Positions 8,678-18,050 of a DNA stretch of 64,000 nucleotides are shown in pieces. This DNA is from Candidatus Woesearchaeota archaeon (GTDB lineage Archaea > Nanobdellota > Nanobdellia > SCGC-AAA011-G17 > ARS1403): positions 1 through 64,000 of the forward strand of contig JACPIN010000010.1 of NCBI GenBank assembly GCA_016188065.1, given 5' to 3'. The notes beneath the pieces were generated by a model. The model worked only from the letters and a program-made list of their open reading frames with translations. It made no database searches and was not told the origin of the DNA. How positions within the stretch are numbered: the first letter of the stretch is position 1; every line of letters starts with the position of its first letter. The translations under genes were made by a program, and so were the position numbers.

Positions 8678-9679
8678 ATGTTGAACTTCAAGACAACAGC
8701 AGAATTGAAAGTATCAAGCAAAATAGCAGGGCAAATCATAGGGCAGGATCAAGGATTGCAGCTAATCAAGAAGGCAGCCCAGCACCGTCGTCATGTTTTG
8801 CTCATAGGTCATCCAGGAACAGGAAAATCTCTTCTCGGTCAGGCATTAGCAGAATTATTGCCAACAGCAAACGAGTTGCAAGATGTTCTCTGCTATCCAA
8901 ATGAAAAAGACCCAAATAATCCAATAATAAAAACATTCCCTGCAGAAGAAGGGGAAAAAACAATAGTCAAGCTCAGAAACAGCTTTGAAAATAGTTTATC
9001 ATCAAGGCGTTTTTATCTGCTGATAATGGGCTCAATATTCGTATTTTTCTTAGGTTATTTTCTCTGGAATGCATTTCGGGAATCCCCTTATGGCCCAATA
9101 GCAATTGTTCAGGGTGTCTCAACAGTAATCTGGATATTATTCATCGGTTTCATGTTATTTTCAAGGGCACCAGGATTTTTAAAAACATTAACAGGGTTGG
9201 CAATGATACCAAAGCCCTTAATCACACATAAGAAAAATGACCCAGCACCATTCCTAGATGCTACTGGCTCGCATTCAGGAGCTTTACTCGGCGATGTACT
9301 TCATGACCCGTTACAATCCTTTAGTGGTAACAAAATAATTAAGCGAAATAACAAAAAAGTGAATATTTCAACAGAAGTAAACAAATTATTGAAGAAACAC
9401 GAAAAGGAATTAATAAAAGAAAAAGGCTATCAAGCTGTTTATTTGAAAAAAGGTGAATTATATATTTTAGCAGAAAAAAATGGCAAAATCCAACCCGTAG
9501 AAGTCATTTCAGTTAATAAATATAAATCAGACAAGCCCCATCTAATTAAAATAACGACAGGATCAGGAAAGACATTAACCGTAACTTCAGAACACAAAAT
9601 AGCAATTAAAAAAATAGGAAAAATAATCTATAAAGAAGCAGGGAAATTGACAAGGTTTGATAAGGTTATAACCTCTTAG
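8678..9679 (+). CDS. lonB: LonB protease N-terminal half fused to split-intein N fragment
   Basis: Residues 1-213 are the start of the archaeal membrane protease LonB: Walker A GHPGTGKS at 44-51, two membrane helices at about 110-165, and the conserved ALLGDVLHDPLQ that ends the N-extein. At residue 214 (base 9317) an intein begins with SFSG, a Ser1 version of the CFSG seen in archaeal Lon inteins. It runs 120 residues, includes the block-B motif TVTSEHK (TxxH), and ends at a stop after KVITS. There is no Walker B or protease domain; these are encoded 5.4 kb downstream at 15035. An AAGGTGAT Shine-Dalgarno sequence precedes the ATG. I read it as one half of a fractured gene restored by protein trans-splicing; a dead fragment is the alternative. 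Confidence 0.9.
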   Translation: MLNFKTTAELKVSSKIAGQIIGQDQGLQLIKKAAQHRRHVLLIGHPGTGKSLLGQALAELLPTANELQDVLCYPNEKDPNNPIIKTFPAEEGEKTIVKLRNSFENSLSSRRFYLLIMGSIFVFFLGYFLWNAFRESPYGPIAIVQGVSTVIWILFIGFMLFSRAPGFLKTLTGLAMIPKPLITHKKNDPAPFLDATGSHSGALLGDVLHDPLQSFSGNKIIKRNNKKVNISTEVNKLLKKHEKELIKEKGYQAVYLKKGELYILAEKNGKIQPVEVISVNKYKSDKPHLIKITTGSGKTLTVTSEHKIAIKKIGKIIYKEAGKLTRFDKVITS

Positions 9680-9712
9680 ACTTGCATTGTTAATTCTTCA
9701 GTGCCCAAAAGA

Positions 9713-9747
9713 TTAATTAGATAAATGAAAAAATTAGACCTAATTAA
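9713..9747. terminator. Hairpin between converging lonB-N and decarboxylase genes
   Basis: TTAATTAG (9713-9720) and CTAATTAA (9740-9747) form an 8-bp stem with a 19-base AT-rich loop, covering the stop codon of the decarboxylase. It lies where the two transcripts converge and could act in both directions; archaeal termination mainly needs U-tracts, so the role is uncertain. Confidence 0.3.
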
Positions 9748-10864
9748 CTACTATAATATTAGGTTTCTTAAAATGCAGAAAATCACTGGAAAAGTTATAC
9801 GCTCCAGCATTTTGAAAAAAGATATAATCTCCGGATTTTGTTTTTGGTAAAGAAACATTTTTTGAAAAAAAATCTAAAGAATCAGGACTTCTCCCCCTTA
9901 TATAGTAATTAACAAGATTTTTATTATTATTTAAGGCTTTCACAGGCAAATTTAATCCAACGATTAAAGTATCCATAGAAGAATTATAGGTAGAAGCATC
10001 TATGATTAAAATATTTTTATCCCCGAACTTTTTGTATTGTTTAACCTTCGCAATTAAAATCACAGCATCTCCAATAATTGCTCTCCCCGGTTCAAAAACA
10101 AATTCAACATTAGGATAAACATTCTTAGTTTTTGTTTTAAACTCATTTATTATTCGTGCGATTTTATTTAGGGAAACAATTGGTCTATCATAAACTATAG
10201 GATATCCTCCACCAAGATTTATTGAATTTAATTTTAGTTTTTTCTTTTTTATTTGTTCAATAATTTCAGATAAAATCCCTAAATTTAATTTCCATGAATT
10301 TAAATTACTATTTTGGGAAGCTAAGTGATTATGGATCCCCAATTTGAATTTTTTATCCTTTAATTTTTCTAAAACTTTTAAATATTCTTCAATATGAATC
10401 CCCAAAAACGAATCTTTTCCATAAACAAATTTTTGGTTATTATGTTTTAGCTCAGTTGAAATTCTTAAAAAAACTTCATTTAATCTATGCGGGGATTTAA
10501 TAATCAGATTAAATTGATTTAAAGAATCAACACAAATTCTTTTAATTCCTAAATTCAAAACTTTTCCTAATTCTTCTTGGTCCAAAGAAGGAGAATAATA
10601 AATTACTTTTGATATATTTTTTATAACTTTCTTTAAAATTTCTAATTCCTCCAATGAGCAAACTGAAAAATTATTCCTATTCAAGTTTATCGTTTTGATA
10701 ACTTCTTTCTCCGAGTTTGTTTTTAGAGAATAAGCAATTTCTCCATTAAATAAATTGTTAAATTTATTTAAATTCTTGATAATAATACTTTTATCATAAA
10801 CAAAACAAGGAGTATTATTCCTCCATAAACCTTTGTGTTGTTTTATTTTCTCAAGAGTATTCAT
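9740..10864 (-). CDS. Fold-III PLP-dependent decarboxylase (Orn/Lys/DAP group)
   Basis: A 374-residue alanine-racemase-fold enzyme. The PLP lysine sits in AYSLKTNS near the N-terminus. GIHNHLAS, the glycine loop LGGGYP and EPGRAIIGDA hold the cofactor, and the C-terminal domain ends with NAGAYNFS. The CDSLD box of typical ornithine and diaminopimelate decarboxylases reads SPDSLD, so the substrate-binding cysteine is replaced. The enzyme should act on an amino acid or peptide-like precursor, but the substrate is unknown. It overlaps the QueC-like gene by four bases, so they are co-translated. The gene looks more A/T-biased than lonB, consistent with acquisition as cargo. Confidence 0.85.
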   Translation of the reverse strand: MNTLEKIKQHKGLWRNNTPCFVYDKSIIIKNLNKFNNLFNGEIAYSLKTNSEKEVIKTINLNRNNFSVCSLEELEILKKVIKNISKVIYYSPSLDQEELGKVLNLGIKRICVDSLNQFNLIIKSPHRLNEVFLRISTELKHNNQKFVYGKDSFLGIHIEEYLKVLEKLKDKKFKLGIHNHLASQNSNLNSWKLNLGILSEIIEQIKKKKLKLNSINLGGGYPIVYDRPIVSLNKIARIINEFKTKTKNVYPNVEFVFEPGRAIIGDAVILIAKVKQYKKFGDKNILIIDASTYNSSMDTLIVGLNLPVKALNNNKNLVNYYIRGRSPDSLDFFSKNVSLPKTKSGDYIFFQNAGAYNFSSDFLHFKKPNIIVVN

Positions 10865-11577
10865 TTTGCAAGAAGAAGTAGTGGGTCTTTTGCTCCAGCA
10901 CTATTAAAAGCTTCCTTTCTCCATTTACATTGATCACAATTGTCACAAGGTTGTTCTTCTCCAAAGTAACAAGACCATGTGTACTGCAATGGTGCTCCTA
11001 TTTCAACTCCTGTTTTAATCACTTCATACTTCATCATCTCAATAAATGGAACAGACACAGACATAGATTTCCCTATTTTGTTGCAATATTTTGTATCCAA
11101 TATCCCTTTAATACAAGTGTAAACTTCGGGTCTTATATCCTCAAAATTAAGAGTATCTTCCTTGGTTGTTGCAATAACAACTTCTCCTTCTCCATAATCT
11201 TTGTTTTCAATAAGCAACCGCTCTAACCAAGAAGCAACCAAAAGAATAAACATCTCATCTCTTGTAAAAGGATATCCCTGAGGAATTAAATTGCCCCTTT
11301 CAACAGTTCTTAATTTGATATATCCATTCAATCTAACTTGCTCATGTTTTTTCACATTCTTAAAATTAGTTAGAAGCCAGTTAATTATTTTATTTCTTGA
11401 TTCTTGCTCTTTTTGTGTTGGTGGAGATTCATAATCAACAGATAAAAGATAAACTTCATTACCTTCCTTAGCTTTCATAACTGCGGCTACACAAGAGTCC
11501 AATCCTCCGCTTAATAAAACTACTGAAACTTTTTTTCCAGTTTTTTTCATAGATTTAATTTTATTTTTCATCTTCAT
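10861..11577 (-). CDS. QueC-like PP-loop ATPase (7-cyano-7-deazaguanine synthase family)
   Basis: The 238-residue protein has the PP-loop SGGLDSC near residue 19 and a C-terminal zinc site (CYFGEEQPCDNCDQC) followed by KWRKEAF, the signature of QueC. QueC turns 7-carboxy-7-deazaguanine into preQ0 using ATP and ammonia. A housekeeping role in archaeosine is possible. However, there is no queD, queE or tgt nearby, and the neighbours are a B12-type radical-SAM enzyme and a PLP decarboxylase, so a specialised metabolite or modification pathway is more likely. It lies nine bases after the radical-SAM gene. Confidence 0.8.
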   Translation of the reverse strand: MKMKNKIKSMKKTGKKVSVVLLSGGLDSCVAAVMKAKEGNEVYLLSVDYESPPTQKEQESRNKIINWLLTNFKNVKKHEQVRLNGYIKLRTVERGNLIPQGYPFTRDEMFILLVASWLERLLIENKDYGEGEVVIATTKEDTLNFEDIRPEVYTCIKGILDTKYCNKIGKSMSVSVPFIEMMKYEVIKTGVEIGAPLQYTWSCYFGEEQPCDNCDQCKWRKEAFNSAGAKDPLLLLAK

Positions 11578-11586
11578 ACTCCATTA

Positions 11587-13083
11587 TTAGAATTCATGTC
11601 TTGTTATATTATCATTATTCAATTCATCATCTATTTCCTTACTCCTAGAAGCAATTTCATAAGGAGAAAAGTCTCTGCTTTCCATAACGGATACATAATT
11701 AATGTATAGTTCAGGAAAGTTCTCTGCATCATATCTGATATGGGGTAGATAGTTTCTTGCATCAGGAGTACCCGGTATTGGAACAGAGCACCAAGGATAA
11801 AATCTTGGAGTTGAATGTCCTTCAGAAGCATGATTTATTAATTCTCCAAATTCCTTAGCTTTTTCTACTGAATATTGTAAAGACTCTTCTGTTTCTCTGG
11901 GATTTCCTATAATGAAGCCAAGATTAAGATGGGGGACTTGGCGTTTAGATATTGCTTCAACAATTTGCATTTCTTTTTCAAGAGGTAATAATTTAGGCAA
12001 TTTTAGCATTTCATCAGGCCAAAACTTTTCCAACGGAAGATATGCCCTAAAGCAACCTTCAAATTTTTCTTCATTTTTCCTGTTGCCGTATAAAGAATCT
12101 ATCAACTCAGAATCTAAAACACCATCTCTATAAAGGAGGCTAATTTGTAATCCATTGTAAAAAGACCAAGCAAATCCCTGATCTCTTAATTTATTAAAAA
12201 ATTTAATAATCTCATCACGTCCATCCTTTCCTCCATATTTTGGTAAAGATCTATATAGTAAGTTATCATCTACAAAAATCAAAGTTTTGGTATCAGCCTC
12301 ACTAAGAGCATCTATTTTTCTTTCTAGAGTTTCAAAGGGAAACATTTTATATTTTCCAATTACAAAAGTACTATCACAAAAAGAACAAGCTTCATCACAT
12401 CCTCTACTAGTCTCAATGGCTGCAATAGAATCACTAACTCCTGCAGGGAGAGGACCATCCGGAATCTCATTAAATCTATATCTTTTTAATAAATCTGCAG
12501 AAGGGAATCCAATTTTTGTTAAATCTTCTCTTGGTGCTTTATATTTATGTCCTTCTGAATCTAAAGTAGCTATGCCTCTTGTATTTTTTAAATCCGTTTT
12601 ATCTAAACCAAGAGATAGATTCCGTGCAATTGTTTCTCCATCACCTATCACACAGATATCTGCTCCTCTTTGTAAATAATAAGAAGGGCATACGGTAGCA
12701 TCGTGACCACCAAGAATAATGGGGAGATTAGGATTTTTCCTTTTAATAGCTCTAATAGTATCAACAATTACATTTCTTTCAGAGGTAAAATTGGCAGTGA
12801 TTCCTATAAGGTCATATTCACTAAGCCTTTCAGAGGCATCATCTAAAGATGTTCCCCTTCTTAAACATTCAATACTTCTTCCTTCGTATTCTATTTCCCT
12901 ATAACTTTCTGATTTTACAGGAGGAAGGGTTTTTAAGTCAACTAAATCTACCTCAATATCCTCGGGCATATTTGCCATTAATTGTAACTGACTATACTTG
13001 GGATGATTTGTAACTGCATCTCCTAAAATCTCTCCTTCTAAAGATAAGATGGATCCAGGTGATTCCACAAATGCGATTTTCAT
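11587..13083 (-). CDS. Cobalamin-binding radical-SAM protein
   Basis: The 498-residue protein starts with a B12-binding-like Rossmann domain (GITANFTSERN, LGGHDATVCPSYY, GDGE). A radical-SAM domain follows, with the CxxxCxxC cluster CDEACSFC at about residues 235-242. A C-terminal region rich in aromatic and Pro residues completes it. Members of this class methylate or rearrange unactivated carbons; the substrate cannot be told. It is the first gene of the three-gene minus-strand operon and diverges from the TrmB-type regulator, with a shared 119-base promoter region. Confidence 0.85.
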   Translation of the reverse strand: MKIAFVESPGSILSLEGEILGDAVTNHPKYSQLQLMANMPEDIEVDLVDLKTLPPVKSESYREIEYEGRSIECLRRGTSLDDASERLSEYDLIGITANFTSERNVIVDTIRAIKRKNPNLPIILGGHDATVCPSYYLQRGADICVIGDGETIARNLSLGLDKTDLKNTRGIATLDSEGHKYKAPREDLTKIGFPSADLLKRYRFNEIPDGPLPAGVSDSIAAIETSRGCDEACSFCDSTFVIGKYKMFPFETLERKIDALSEADTKTLIFVDDNLLYRSLPKYGGKDGRDEIIKFFNKLRDQGFAWSFYNGLQISLLYRDGVLDSELIDSLYGNRKNEEKFEGCFRAYLPLEKFWPDEMLKLPKLLPLEKEMQIVEAISKRQVPHLNLGFIIGNPRETEESLQYSVEKAKEFGELINHASEGHSTPRFYPWCSVPIPGTPDARNYLPHIRYDAENFPELYINYVSVMESRDFSPYEIASRSKEIDDELNNDNITRHEF

Positions 13084-13130
13084 TTTTTCTCCATTTTATT
13101 TTTACTTAGTAGTAGTGGTTCTACAGACGT

Positions 13131-13183
13131 TTTTATAATTAATCTTCCCCTTAGGGGGGGAATATAGAAAGGCTTATATAGTA
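13131..13183. promoter_or_regulatory. Divergent promoter region with CCCCTTAGGGG operator-like site
   Basis: CTTATATAGT at 13173-13182 is a TATA box about 25 bases before the regulator ATG at 13203. On the other strand ATTATAAAAA near 13131-13140 can serve the radical-SAM gene. The near-palindrome CCCCTTAGGGG (13147-13157) lies between the two boxes, well placed for one regulator to control both directions. Confidence 0.5.
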
Positions 13184-13202
13184 AATATTCATAATATAAT
13201 CT

Positions 13203-13964
13203 ATGGTAGAATTAATTTTACTAAATAAGGCAGGACTTACAGAAGGAGAAGGGAAGGTATATTTAGCATTATTAGAGACAGGTCAATCTTCTATAACAGA
13301 GATTGTAAAAAAATCGGGAATTTCAACTTCTAAATCTTATGATGTTTTGAACAGGCTGGAAGAAAAAGGATTAGTAAGTCACGTTATAATGAATAATATA
13401 AAATATTTCAAAGCTGCTAGTCCACATAGAATCTTGGATATTTTACAAGATAAGAATAAAGAGATAGAAGAAACTCTTTCCAAAATTGAACAAATTATTC
13501 CCGAGTTAATCTCAAAACAAGAAGCAAAAGAAGGAGAAGAAGAGGCAGAACTTTATGTTGGAATTAAAGGTTTAATCTCTGTGTTCAATGAAGAAACCGA
13601 ATGGATGAAGCAAAATAATGGAGTCTCCTATGCAATTGGACTGACAACGGGTGGAAAATCAGGAAAAGAAGTAGATAATTATTTTGAGAGAATGCAATAT
13701 AAAAGAGATAAACTTAAATTAAAAGTACAAATAATTGCAAATAAAAATTCCAAAGGATTATTCCCCTATTTAGAAAAATCAAAATATGTAGATATTAGAT
13801 ATATAGAAGCTGGATCTGAAATGGTATCTATGAATACTTATGCGAACAAATTAATAATCGCTGTCTATTCAAAAAGACCCCTTTTATTTGTTATCAAAAG
13901 TAAAGATTTAGTTAAAGATTTTAAAGAATACTTCAATTCCTTATGGAAAATAGCTAAAAGATAA
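13203..13964 (+). CDS. TrmB-family transcriptional regulator
   Basis: The 253-residue protein has an N-terminal winged helix (residues 1-75: LNKAGLTEGEGKVYLALLE, SSITEIVKKSGISTSKSYDVL, then LEEKGLVSHV). A coiled coil follows at about 80-110, then a TrmB-type C-terminal domain with GIKGLISVFNEE. TrmB proteins repress or activate sugar and metabolic genes. Here the gene diverges from the radical-SAM operon and is one base upstream of the homing endonuclease, so it may regulate the cargo operon and its own transcript that includes the endonuclease. Confidence 0.85.
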   Translation: MVELILLNKAGLTEGEGKVYLALLETGQSSITEIVKKSGISTSKSYDVLNRLEEKGLVSHVIMNNIKYFKAASPHRILDILQDKNKEIEETLSKIEQIIPELISKQEAKEGEEEAELYVGIKGLISVFNEETEWMKQNNGVSYAIGLTTGGKSGKEVDNYFERMQYKRDKLKLKVQIIANKNSKGLFPYLEKSKYVDIRYIEAGSEMVSMNTYANKLIIAVYSKRPLLFVIKSKDLVKDFKEYFNSLWKIAKR

Positions 13965-13965
13965 A

Positions 13966-14994
13966 ATGAAAATCATAACCCAACAGGACATAATAAATAC
14001 ATACAGCAAAAGACAGCAAGAGCAATCAAGGCTTTATTACGAATATAAAAGGATAAAAAGAGAAAATCCAGAATTTGGTTACAAAAGAATCTCAAAACTT
14101 CTAGATCAGCCAGAACATAAAACGAGATGGTGGAATGCAAGAAAACATACTCCTGTTCCAATCCAAACAATCAACTGGCTAAAAGAAAAAGAATTAATTC
14201 CATTAAATGAAGATGATAAAAGACTTCCATTAATATCAAGAATTCTAGGAACAACATTTGGAGATGGAGGTATTGATATTAATCACAATATGATTTTTCT
14301 ATCAAGCTCAGAGTTAAAGTCATTAGAAGATTTTAAGCAGGATTTTATAGAAATATTTGGAAAAGAAATAGAAAAGAACTTTGATATAAGAAGAGGAGGG
14401 ATTAATGAAACTTCATACTGTATAAGGAATACAAACAGAAATGCAATAAGGTTTTTCAAAGCATTAGGAAGTCCTATCGGAAATAAAACAAAACAAGTTT
14501 TAAGGTTTCCAGAATGGATGGGGGTGAATCAAACTGTAGAAGATGAGTTTTTCTTTTCATTATTTGGGTCCGAAGTAGGGATTCCAAAATGTAGAGGAGG
14601 ACAAGCAAATACCTTCGACATAGCGATTGGAGGGTTACCTGAGCTTCATGAAAATAGATACAACTTAATGAATCAAATAAAAGACTATCTCCTAACTAAA
14701 GGAATTGAATCAGGGAAAATCTCAATTAATAAATCAAAATCTGGAAAAAATCAACATACTTTCATTTACAGGTTATTAATCTCAACCAAAGTAGAAAATA
14801 TGATGAACTTCCTTAAGAAAGTTAGATTAAACTATTGCTATTACAAAACAGACAAACTAAAAAATACAATCGATGAAATCCTAATAATAAAACATAAAAG
14901 ATTCAGAGATATAGAAAAGATGTATGGTTGGAATAAAAAAATAATTCTTAAGGTATTGAATGTAAAAGGAAAAGAGATTCCATTTAGAGAATAA
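13966..14994 (+). CDS. Free-standing LAGLIDADG homing endonuclease
   Basis: The 342-residue protein has two LAGLIDADG motifs: ISRILGTTFGDGGI at about 90-103, with the acidic residue in GDG, and FFFSLFGSEVGI at about 194-206. An N-terminal helix-turn-helix-like part (GYKRISKLLDQPEHKTRWW) and a C-terminal helical tail (RDIEKMYGWNKKIILKVL) would add DNA contacts. In ordinary inteins this enzyme is embedded between the splicing blocks. Here it has its own start and stop and lies between the two intein halves of lonB, one base after the TrmB gene and 40 bases before the C-half start. The likely target is the unoccupied lonB insertion site. Confidence 0.88.
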   Translation: MKIITQQDIINTYSKRQQEQSRLYYEYKRIKRENPEFGYKRISKLLDQPEHKTRWWNARKHTPVPIQTINWLKEKELIPLNEDDKRLPLISRILGTTFGDGGIDINHNMIFLSSSELKSLEDFKQDFIEIFGKEIEKNFDIRRGGINETSYCIRNTNRNAIRFFKALGSPIGNKTKQVLRFPEWMGVNQTVEDEFFFSLFGSEVGIPKCRGGQANTFDIAIGGLPELHENRYNLMNQIKDYLLTKGIESGKISINKSKSGKNQHTFIYRLLISTKVENMMNFLKKVRLNYCYYKTDKLKNTIDEILIIKHKRFRDIEKMYGWNKKIILKVLNVKGKEIPFRE

Positions 14995-15004
14995 AACATC
15001 AACC

Positions 15005-15012
15005 TTTTAAAT
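15005..15012 (+). promoter_or_regulatory. TATA box for the LonB C-half
   Basis: TTTTAAAT lies about 26 bases before the ATG at 15035, just after the endonuclease stop. It gives the C-terminal half its own leaderless promoter, as a separately expressed split-intein partner would need. Confidence 0.55.
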
Positions 15013-15034
15013 CTTCTTTTCTAACAAAAAACGT

Positions 15035-16393
15035 ATGAAACTCACTTCAGAAAGAATCAAGAAAATAGAAAAAATTCCCTATAAGGGGCATTTATACAAC
15101 CTTACGACAGAAACAGGAAACTTATTTGCAAATAATATTTTAGTAAAAAACTCAGGAGGCCTAGGAACTCCCGCACATGAAAGAATTGTTCCGGGCATGG
15201 TTCACAGGGCAAACGGAGGAGTTTTATTTATAGATGAAATCTCTTTGCTGTCTCCAAAATCACAGCAAGAATTACTAACAATTCTCCAGGAAAAAAAATA
15301 CCCCATCACAGGTCAGTCAGAGCATTCATCAGGGGCAATGACAAGGACGCAGCCAGTTCCATCAGATTTTGTTTTAGTGGCAGCAGGCAATGAAGAGACA
15401 ATTGCAAAAATGCATCCAGCTTTAAGATCAAGAATTCGTGGTTATGGTTACGAGATACATATGAATCATGACATGGATGACGCTTTAGAAAATCAAATGA
15501 AGATTGCACAATTCATAGCACAGGAAGTTGTCAAGGATAAAAAAATTCCGCATTTCTCATTAGCTGCGGTAGAAGAGATAATTAACGAGGCAAAGCGCAG
15601 GGCTGGTACCTCAGGAAAATTAACATTGCATCTGCGAGAATTAGGAGGGTTAGTAAGGGCAGCAGGAGATCTGGCAAAAGAGGAAGGGAAGCAAATAACA
15701 GAGAAAGATCACGTAATCAGGGCAAAGATTTTAGCGCGCCCATTAGAGCAGCAGCTTGCAGACAAATACATAGAAGAAAAAAAGAAATATGAAATAATAA
15801 TCACAAAAGGAAAAATCATCGGAAGAGTTAACGGATTGGCAGTAATGGGCTCAGAAACTTCTCTGTCAGGAATCGTTCTCCCAATAGAATCAGAAATCAC
15901 CCCTGGAGGAATGCAGGGAACAGAAATTGTTGCAACCGGTCAATTAGGCAAGATAGCAAAAGAAGCAGTAAAAAATGTTTCTGCAATTATCCTGAAATAC
16001 TTCGGCAAAGACTTGAAAGAAAAGCATGATATCTTCGTCCAATTCCTTTACACTTACTCAGGTGTAGAAGGAGACTCAGCATCTATAGCAGTTGCAACAG
16101 CAATAGTCTCAGCATTCACAAAAGCCCCTGTAAAGCAAGATTATGCAATGACGGGCTCTTTATCAGTCCGTGGAGAAGTATTAGCTGTAGGAGGAGTTAC
16201 GCAAAAGGCAGAAGCAGCAATTGGAGCAGGAATAACACATTTAATAATTCCAAAGACAAATCTCAACGATGTTATCTTGTCAGAAGAAAAACGAAATCAA
16301 ATAAAAATTATTCCAGTAGAAAGAATCGAGGAAGTTTTGAAAGAAGTGCTGGACTGGAAAGGCAAAGAAAAAATCCTGAAAAAGTTAAAGTAA
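15035..16393 (+). CDS. lonB: Split-intein C fragment fused to LonB C-terminal half
   Basis: Residues 1-39 form an intein C fragment: [14 protein letters not shown], block F ([17 protein letters not shown]) and block G ILVKN, followed by Ser40. The size matches known natural split-intein C fragments. The C-extein then continues LonB exactly where the N half left off: [15 protein letters not shown], Walker B GVLFIDEI, the arginine region ALRSRIRG and the Lon protease domain. That domain has the catalytic Ser in EGDSAS and the Lys in GVTQKAEAA. Joined, the exteins make 626 residues, a normal LonB. The penultimate intein residue is Lys instead of the common His, which some active inteins also lack. 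Confidence 0.92.
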
Positions 16394-16815: not shown

Positions 16816-17740
16816 ACACTCTTTTTAGCTAAAAAGAGTGTGAAATAGGGGGCACACTCCCGAAAGAGGTGATCCCCATGCATTGTCCCCAATGCAATAA
16901 AATAAGCATAAAGAACGGAAGATATAAAGATTTCCAAAAATTCAAATGCAAGAATTGCAGTCTGCAATTCTCAGAAAGAAGCTTAAGCTTCTTTCATAGG
17001 CATAGATATCCTGAAGAAATTATAAGAAATTCAATTCTCTTCTGCATGTTTGTCTCAACAAGGATATCAAAATTCATGCTGCAGGAAACCCTGCAGTTCA
17101 AGCCAAGCCATGTTTCCATCTACAGATGGACACTTAAGTTTGCTAATCACTTAGCAAACTTAAAGAGAAGCAGAAGCTTCTCTAACATCTGGCATGTGGA
17201 TGAGAAATTTATTAGAGTTAGGGGCAGTAAAGATGATTTTGCATATTTGTGGGTAGTTATCGACGATAAGAACAATATGATAACAGCTCATGTCTCTCTC
17301 AAAAGAGACATTAATGGTGCAGTTGCAGCTTTAACAAAAGCAAATAAAATCGCTGAGAAGCCCCCGGACATTCTGATAAGTGATGGTCTGCAGGCTTACA
17401 AGAAAGCCTGCAAAAAAGTGTTTGGCAGAAAAACCAAACACTTTCAAGCTCATTTCAAAACAGTTGTAAAAATGATTGGAAATAGGCTTTATTTTCTGAG
17501 CAACAACAGAATAGAAAGCCTAAACTCCAAAATAAACCTCTGGTACAAAAGATTCAGAGGCTTCAAGAGATTGGCAACTGCCAATCTCTGGTGTGAAATG
17601 TGGATGCATTTCTACAATTTGATAAGACCGAGGGTCATTCCTCACAAAACAATAAGCATCCATGCAATAATCTAGAAATTTCTTATCAAAATTCCTTAAC
17701 TAAGGATTCCCATCATTAGTTAACTTAACAGAGTCCCCAA
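16816..17740 (+). mobile_element. IS6-like insertion sequence, ends approximate
   Basis: The element starts near a perfect 26-bp palindrome (16816-16841: ACACTCTTTTTAG and its complement). It holds one transposase gene and ends after a cluster of short inverted repeats (TTAACTAA / TTAGTTAA near 17696-17723). Possible end words GGGGGCACACTC (left) and, reversed, GGGGACTC (right, near 17735) are only loosely alike, and no target duplication could be fixed, so the borders are guesses. Confidence 0.5.
16878..17675 (+). CDS. IS6/IS240-like DDE transposase
   Basis: The 265-residue protein has an N-terminal zinc ribbon (CPQC...CKNC), a helix-turn-helix (FKPSHVSIYRW) and a DDE core: WHVDEKFIRVRG, ISDGLQAY and NNRIESLNSKIN. 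The ATG at 16878 is preferred over the GTG at 16869, because that GTG is part of the Shine-Dalgarno word GAGGTGAT five bases upstream. At least ten perfect stems of 7-12 bp lie within the coding sequence (for example 16951-16971, 16974-16995, 17134-17163, 17415-17444, 17566-17589). The 5' leader can also pair GGGG with CCCC around the ribosome site. Confidence 0.88.
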   Translation: MHCPQCNKISIKNGRYKDFQKFKCKNCSLQFSERSLSFFHRHRYPEEIIRNSILFCMFVSTRISKFMLQETLQFKPSHVSIYRWTLKFANHLANLKRSRSFSNIWHVDEKFIRVRGSKDDFAYLWVVIDDKNNMITAHVSLKRDINGAVAALTKANKIAEKPPDILISDGLQAYKKACKKVFGRKTKHFQAHFKTVVKMIGNRLYFLSNNRIESLNSKINLWYKRFRGFKRLATANLWCEMWMHFYNLIRPRVIPHKTISIHAII

Positions 17741-17774: not shown

Positions 17775-18050
17775 TTAACCCTCAATCAAACGCTTTTCTT
17801 TATCCCAAGCCTTCAACAACCCCTTGCTTATCCTCCATCTCTTCCTGTTCCCTCTTGCATTCTTTCCAAATACCTCTTCAACCCAGTTTAGTTTTTTCAT
17901 TTCCAATAGCAATTTAAGGGTAAACTCCTTGTCTCTTCTCAGCTCCTTGGCAATCTCTTTTGTAAATCTGCTTCTGCTAGGGTTTTCATTCAATATGCTT
18001 AGAATGTCATCTTTCAGCAATTTAACAGTATCTTCAGATAATCTTACCAC
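17775..18050 (-). CDS. Winged-helix DNA-binding protein, 91 aa
   Basis: A small basic protein with a helix-turn-helix layout: VKLLKDDILSILNENPSRSRFTKEIAKELRRDKEFTLKLLLEMKKL, then a wing (GKNARGNRKRWRISK). It resembles MarR/ArsR-type archaeal regulators but lacks a sensor domain. It stands alone between the IS6-like element and argS, on the opposite strand. Its target is unknown. Confidence 0.6.
   Translation of the reverse strand: MVRLSEDTVKLLKDDILSILNENPSRSRFTKEIAKELRRDKEFTLKLLLEMKKLNWVEEVFGKNARGNRKRWRISKGLLKAWDKEKRLIEG

What the first reader, a model, noticed from the sequence alone, without database searches (positions are those of the whole stretch)
8678..16393. Fractured LonB: split intein with 5.4 kb of cargo and a free-standing homing endonuclease between the halves
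Seen in sequence: the N half (to 9679) is the LonB Walker A and membrane part plus a 120-residue intein N fragment starting SFSG with TxxH. The C half (15035) has a 39-residue intein C fragment ending ILVKN-S, then Walker B and the Ser/Lys protease. Exteins join without gap to 626 residues. Between them are a radical-SAM/QueC-like/decarboxylase operon, a TrmB-type gene and a LAGLIDADG gene, each with own start and stop. Known: 'fractured genes' with split inteins and a separate endonuclease have been described in metagenomic and phage-like settings. A membrane-bound archaeal protease assembled by trans-splicing around a biosynthetic cargo looks new. The separate TATA box at 15005 lets the halves be made independently, so splicing could control LonB.
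Basis: partly seen in the sequence, partly recalled or inferred. Interest (0 to 1): 0.97.

Follow-up and report, generated by a model that had tools for sequence, protein, structure and literature searches.

The report
Broken protease gene hosting cargo genes
In one archaeal genome the only gene found for the membrane protease LonB is broken into two separate genes, each carrying half of a protein-splicing element that is predicted to stitch the protein back together, with four unrelated genes and a predicted DNA-cutting homing enzyme lying in between; relatives carry the same break with other contents, and the splicing element has likely spread between lineages.

Summary
lonB is fractured at HDPLQ|SGGLG: an N half (213 LonB residues + 120-residue IntN) and a C half (39-residue IntC + 413 residues). 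The exteins add up to the 626-aa intact LonB of a same-genus genome. No second lonB was found (genome 91% complete).

It is not an assembly accident. In the window's order 17 of 85 genomes with a lonB match have a split lonB, in 7 families; 18 more were found outside the order. Forms seen: intact; continuous intein; single split (IntN-endonuclease fused, IntC separate); double split (IntN | free LAGLIDADG endonuclease | IntC); double split with the endonuclease decayed or lost, or with cargo. 9 of 14 double-split loci with both halves on one contig hold extra genes.

Splicing residues are kept in every copy checked, dN/dS is well below 1, and intein and endonuclease similarity often disagrees with LonB similarity, so the element likely moves horizontally. 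Trans-splicing, cleavage and transport of cargo are inferred, not shown. "Fractured genes" are known; an archaeal essential-type protease, the graded forms and multi-gene cargo make this a new variant. The regulation idea has no evidence.

The parts
8678..9316 (+). LonB N-extein (213 aa: Walker A, membrane part, ends HDPLQ)
   Evidence: TIGR00764 positions 2-198
9317..9676 (+). Intein N fragment (IntN), 120 aa, Ser1, block-B TSEH; stop codon 9677-9679
9740..10864 (-). Cargo: PLP-dependent decarboxylase (Orn/DAP/Arg type)
   Evidence: PF02784, PF00278
10861..11577 (-). Cargo: QueC-like ATPase
   Evidence: PF06508; below the TIGR00364 cut-off
11587..13083 (-). Cargo: B12-binding radical SAM protein
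   Evidence: PF02310, PF04055; at E<=1e-30 relatives in only 2 other genomes of 103, at 30-31%
13174..13180 (+). TATA-like TTATATA, 29 nt before the TrmB ATG
   Evidence: read in sequence; untested
13203..13964 (+). Cargo: TrmB-type winged-helix regulator
   Evidence: PF01978
13966..14994 (+). Free-standing LAGLIDADG homing endonuclease with helical N-terminal domain (342 aa); one base lies between it and the TrmB stop
15005..15012 (+). TATA-like TTTTAAAT, 30 nt before the C-half ATG
   Evidence: untested
15035..15151 (+). Intein C fragment (IntC), 39 aa, ends VKN
15152..16393 (+). LonB C-extein (413 aa: starts SGGLG, Walker B, Lon_C protease domain)
   Evidence: PF05362, TIGR00764 600.3 bits

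Best explanation
The only lonB found in this genome is split into two ORFs carrying complementary halves of one intein, and the two proteins are predicted to join by protein trans-splicing into a 626-residue LonB. Shown: the break, the intein halves, conservation of the splicing residues, the forms in relatives, and intein and endonuclease similarities that disagree with the host protein. Inferred: (1) IntN and IntC associate and splice through Ser1, the block-B His, the last Asn and Ser+1. (2) The LAGLIDADG endonuclease cuts intein-free lonB at HDPLQ/SGGLG, and repair copies the split form into the new host, so the fractured allele spreads as a mobile element. (3) Once IntN, endonuclease and IntC are separate genes, the space between them no longer has to keep a reading frame, so other genes on either strand can settle there without harming LonB; in this genome these are a three-gene biosynthetic-type operon and a TrmB regulator. 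(4) A C half detached from the endonuclease gene uses its own promoter.
For: Halves and junction. No second lonB; each of the 17 split genomes of the order has a single match at E<=1e-60. Splicing residues: N1 is S, T or C in 30 of 30 IntN; block-B Thr and His 30 of 30; last Asn 35 of 35; +1 Ser 35 of 35 (of 35 split loci, G006 was left out of the IntN counts as partial, and G010, G039, G070 and G295 have no IntN on the contig). dN/dS where finite, over 15 pairs that I chose: IntN 0.15-0.39, IntC 0.03-0.24, HEN 0.05-0.31, dS near saturation. Mobility: G022 and G080 (same family) share 88% of the C-extein but only 55% of intein and 55% of HEN; G081 and G089 (different families) share 69% extein, 74% intein, 68% HEN; G000 and G082 (different families) have sister HENs (100/100), 68% identical at 71% extein, while G000 and same-family G002 (83% extein) have HENs 36% identical, G002's being a decayed piece. 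Patchiness: well-supported branches force at least 10 changes of the split label, and G000 is sister to intact G001 (quick tree, 60 rows). HEN fold; Asp100 invariant in 51 aligned sequences (50 chosen of 81 found besides the window's). Cargo: 9 of 14 double-split loci against 0-2 of 15 single-split (Fisher 0.0002-0.008). LonB is essential in Haloferax volcanii (PMC9263693, passages).
Confidence: 0.82

Rival explanations
1. The cargo travels: homing copies the whole stretch between the intein halves, cargo included, so the fractured intein is a cargo-carrying island whose damage to lonB is cancelled by trans-splicing.
For: A 101-aa ORF sits between HEN and IntC in G090 (family f5) and in G034 and G078 (f12), 61-63% identical, while the other matches in 103 genomes are at most 42%; the HENs of G034, G090, G078 and G020 form one starred group, 99/98. 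The window's HEN is full-length and starts right after TrmB.
Against: G082, which has the sister HEN of G000, lacks the G000 cargo. TrmB genes in the gaps are only 26-37% identical to each other, so they are not one recently travelling gene. One relative (40%) of the 101-aa ORF lies just downstream of an intact lonB (G054), so this ORF may be a neighbour of lonB rather than cargo of the element.
Confidence: 0.3
2. The halves work as two subunits held together without splicing, or LonB activity is lost or replaced.
For: Walker A and Walker B are on different proteins that could pair; no splicing data exist.
Against: Intein splicing residues are kept in all copies checked and dN/dS is far below 1; there would be no clear reason to keep them without splicing. 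LonB exteins stay conserved.
Confidence: 0.07
3. The split regulates LonB: independent promoters and splicing act as a switch.
For: TATA-like box at -30 of the C half; TrmB regulator nearby.
Against: In 5 of 17 double-split loci the C half overlaps the HEN gene by 10 nt, and in 9 of 15 single-split loci it overlaps the fused ORF by 4 nt, an arrangement that would tie the halves together; a TrmB gene was found in only 4 of the 14 double-split gaps (G078 not part).
Confidence: 0.1
4. Assembly or binning artefact.
For: Most of the genomes are in many contigs; some loci end at contig edges, and G078 has frame breaks.
Against: The same break in 35 genomes with differing contents and recurring neighbours; related N halves and endonucleases on many contigs in the protein database.
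Confidence: 0.01

Closest known systems
Fractured genes with split inteins in metagenomes (Dassa et al. 2009, recalled; seen here only as a reference-list title)
   Same: Host gene broken at an intein site, halves kept side by side, free-standing homing endonuclease between them (as recalled).
   Different: As recalled, phage-like or bacterial-type genes with another endonuclease family; here a cellular archaeal protease, a LAGLIDADG enzyme, forms from continuous to double-split, and multi-gene cargo on both strands.
Nanoarchaeum equitans DNA polymerase split intein and cyanobacterial DnaE split inteins (recalled; passages in PMC8861304)
   Same: Naturally split inteins in essential genes.
   Different: As recalled, halves far apart on the chromosome and no endonuclease between; here halves in place at one locus with an endonuclease, and signs of horizontal movement.
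Intein-embedded endonucleases in Hef-, RFC- and RtcB-like proteins of the same archaea (host proteins named by eye)
   Same: Endonucleases related to the window's (27-30% identity), inside continuous inteins of these genomes.
   Different: Those are in one reading frame with the host protein, which leaves no room for cargo.
HEG-islands of phages (PMC10448857, passages)
   Same: Homing endonucleases proposed to move cargo genes.
   Different: Flanked by endonuclease genes on both ends; no intein and no broken host gene in the passages seen.

Membership tests
Split intein (class 1 type) | Nucleophile (C/S, here also T) at residue 1 of the N fragment | tested here: met
   16 S, 9 T, 5 C of 30; window Ser. 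Thr as residue 1 is unusual (recalled).
Split intein (class 1 type) | Block-B TxxH | tested here: met
   Thr and His 30 of 30
Split intein (class 1 type) | C fragment ends in Asn, next residue C/S/T | tested here: met
   Asn 35 of 35, Ser+1 35 of 35. The penultimate His, common but not required as I recall, is present in 1 of 35.
Split intein (class 1 type) | Halves on separate ORFs and no second intact host gene | tested here: met
   genome 91.29% complete; exception among relatives: G295
Split intein (class 1 type) | Ligated protein product | not testable with these tools
   needs protein chemistry
Fractured gene arrangement | Free-standing homing endonuclease gene between adjacent halves | tested here: met
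   window and 8 other double-split loci with full-length HEN (G039 lacks its N half on the contig)
Fractured gene arrangement | Endonuclease of the family named in the 2009 report (recalled as non-LAGLIDADG) | tested here: not met
   LAGLIDADG fold; so same arrangement, other endonuclease family. The 2009 paper itself was not held.
LAGLIDADG homing endonuclease | Two-repeat LAGLIDADG fold with an acidic residue in each motif | tested here: met
LAGLIDADG homing endonuclease | Cleaves the empty site | not testable with these tools
   needs enzyme assay
Archaeal LonB | Family match over both halves | tested here: met
   TIGR00764: N half positions 2-198 (160.9 bits), C half 195-606 (600.3 bits, cut-off 516.6)
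HEG-island | Cargo flanked by endonuclease genes at both ends | tested here: not met
   one HEN only between the halves

The most novel reading that the evidence does not exclude
A new kind of mobile island: a fractured intein whose halves are the island's borders. Its endonuclease inserts it into an essential gene, trans-splicing heals the host protein, and the freed interval carries arbitrary genes (operons, regulators, helicase, transporter) from lineage to lineage.
Probability: 0.28. Interest if true: 0.95.

Novelty: new variant of a known kind. Interest (0 to 1): 0.82.

Why it matters
Split inteins are called rare in nature (PMC10663303, passages). Here one gene gives 35 natural cases in the genomes searched, beside intact and continuous forms in related hosts, so the origin and fate of split inteins become testable by comparison. 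It also shows how an essential-type gene can be cut open in place and turned into a site that holds other genes. The new natural split pairs, 9 of 30 beginning with Thr, are candidates for protein-splicing tools.

Tried and rejected
Co-conversion of LonB flanks: windows of 90 nt show no tract near the junction between G000 and G001 (the last N-extein window was only a short remainder). A viral vehicle: no HEN relative confirmed in viral contigs (79 pattern matches) and none in 50,697 phage records. A travelling TrmB: rejected, copies only 26-37% identical; TrmB is nonetheless enriched: 98 matches over the cut-off, counted by hand, in 13 double-split genomes of about 11.6 Mb (rounded sizes; G001 not counted), 5 of them in 29.8 kb of lonB gaps at 4 loci; expected 0.25; Poisson 7e-6 for 5, 1e-4 for 4. 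Conserved cargo operon elsewhere: the two other genomes with a radical-SAM relative show no QueC-like or decarboxylase partner on the stretch held (contigs of 8.8 and 7.3 kb). Sequence search of the PDB with the HEN profile found nothing at E 0.1. Polarity of single versus double split: unresolved. Rows dropped or reclassed: G024 from the LonB tree (junction pattern not matched), which used 20 of the 64 intact forms of the order plus that of G295; G006 from the IntN residue counts; a 76-aa minus-strand ORF of G002 beside the decayed HEN not counted as cargo; G081 HEN counted as broken although labels it full, because its first 32 residues are cut off by a break; G078 is a low-quality contig with frame breaks.

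Full report
Observation. The window holds the two halves exactly where stated. The N half (8678-9679) ends the LonB sequence at HDPLQ and continues with 120 intein residues. The C half (15035-16393) begins with 39 intein residues ending in KN and continues with SGGLG. Together the exteins make 626 residues, as in the intact LonB of G001, a genome of the same genus. Walker A is in the N half, Walker B and the protease domain in the C half (motifs named from recall, domain), so neither half looks like a complete enzyme. The genome (881,203 bases, 91.29% complete) gave no second lonB.

Relatives. In the window's order 103 genomes were searched with the C half; 85 gave a match at E<=1e-60. Seventeen have a split C half, in seven families; 64 have an uninterrupted frame of 616-663 aa; G021 has an intein at another site (Walker A); G033, G043 and G075 are incomplete; no continuous intein at this site was seen in the order. 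Across 371 genomes drawn from the phylum, 261 gave a match at E<=1e-12; 27 have a split C half (9 in the order, 18 outside) and 4 have a continuous intein at this site (the weakest matches are not listed). A named-genome scan found 11 loci, nine titled Candidatus Woesearchaeota, one Nanoarchaeota, one 'archaeon'; the window's own name is not given.

Forms. Continuous: G203 has an in-frame intein of 474 residues whose endonuclease resembles the window's; G120, G189 and G241 have another endonuclease type (by eye). Single split: in 15 genomes outside the order IntN and endonuclease are one ORF and IntC is separate; in 9 of these the second ORF overlaps the first by 4 nt. Double split: in the order IntN, endonuclease and IntC are three ORFs. 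Endonuclease state in the 17: full in 9 (G000, G020, G022, G034, G039, G080, G082, G089, G090), broken in 4 (G002, G036, G078, G081; G078 is a poor contig), absent in 2 (G006, G018), unknown at contig ends in 2 (G010, G070). Outside the order, G141 keeps an endonuclease remnant, G128 has none, and G295 has a diverged split form plus an intact lonB. The direction of change between single and double split is not settled by the trees.

Cargo. Fourteen double-split loci have the end of IntN and the C half on one contig (in G006 the rest of the N half is on another contig or missing). Nine hold genes besides the endonuclease: G000 (four), G006 (two TrmB, a Pif1-like helicase, a PQ-loop protein, a haem-oxygenase-like protein, a small ORF), G018 (two small ORFs), G020 (one), G034 (TrmB and four ORFs), G078 (the 101-aa ORF), G081 (GDSL lipase, TrmB), G082 (one 390-aa ORF), G090 (the 101-aa ORF). 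Several of the small ORFs have no family match and may not be genes. Of 15 single-split loci 13 show no ORF of 75 aa or more in the gap besides the endonuclease and two have short ones of 75 and 110 aa. Fisher's test gives 0.0002 to 0.008 depending on how those two are counted. An 86-97-aa ORF, alike by eye, sits upstream of the N half in the loci that reach that far, so the gene was opened in place.

Selection and mobility. All splicing residues checked are kept (30 of 30 IntN, 35 of 35 IntC). dN/dS of both intein fragments is well below 1, though synonymous sites are near saturation. The LonB C-extein tree (60 rows: 35 split, 21 intact, 4 continuous; quick method) largely keeps the family codes of the order together, while the split label needs 17 changes, at least 10 forced by well-supported branches; shuffled labels need 19.4 on average, so the label is barely clustered. 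Intein and endonuclease identities often do not follow LonB: G022 and G080 (88% extein) have 55% identical inteins and endonucleases, and G000's endonuclease is sister to that of G082 from another family. Against this, the intein tree keeps G000, G006 and G002 of one family together with G022 (83/78). On balance this is what homing of the fractured form would give; cleavage itself is untested.

Expression. C halves that do not overlap the endonuclease gene have a TATA-like box 24-34 nt upstream in 9 of 12 double-split cases by script (G034 makes 10 when its upstream start is read by eye), against 1 of 5 overlapping ones and 4 of 15 single-split ones; random positions give 5.4%. In 5 double-split loci the C half overlaps the endonuclease gene by 10 nt.

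Literature. Seven searches (two searches listed 20 of 28 papers) listed no title or abstract start on a split LonB intein or on split inteins in Woesearchaeota. Fractured genes (Dassa et al. 2009) I know from recall and from reference lists. LonB is essential in Haloferax volcanii (PMC9263693, passages). Phage HEG-islands are the nearest idea of endonuclease-borne cargo (PMC10448857, passages). Split inteins in replication genes have been discussed as constructive neutral evolution (PMC10643990, passages).

Verdict. A real fractured gene, predicted to be mended by trans-splicing, part of a likely mobile split-intein family in Woesearchaeota-type archaea (group name from relatives' titles), with an interval that repeatedly takes up genes. 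Whether homing also carries those genes is the open and most interesting question.

Noticed in passing
relatives G080, G126, G246, G157, G284, G306, G339, G154, G354: Residue 1 of IntN is Thr in 9 of 30 split LonB inteins; Thr there is unusual as far as I recall.
   Followed up: partly
window 16869-17675: IS240-type DDE transposase gene between the lonB C half and a downstream neighbour ORF (17775-18050) that in G001 follows lonB directly.
   Followed up: no
L094 (G000:C9), 310-2502: A tsaD/kae1-like gene (named by eye) reads CLGIESTA in one frame and DTFSAAVVTEDG in another, about 16 nt apart, with a free-standing ORF related to the endonuclease (26%) just upstream; tiny intron, frameshift or assembly error.
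   Followed up: partly
L051 (G020), L056 (G021): A LonB intein inserted at Walker A; G020 has both that and the split one.
   Followed up: no
L121 and L127 (G295): A diverged split lonB C half with endonuclease in one contig and an intact lonB in another contig of the same genome.
   Followed up: partly
L131 (G054): A relative (40%) of the 101-aa cargo ORF begins about 170 nt downstream of an intact lonB.
   Followed up: no
L093 (G000:C1): An RtcB-like protein of the window's own genome carries a continuous intein with an endonuclease related to the lonB one (27%).
   Followed up: no
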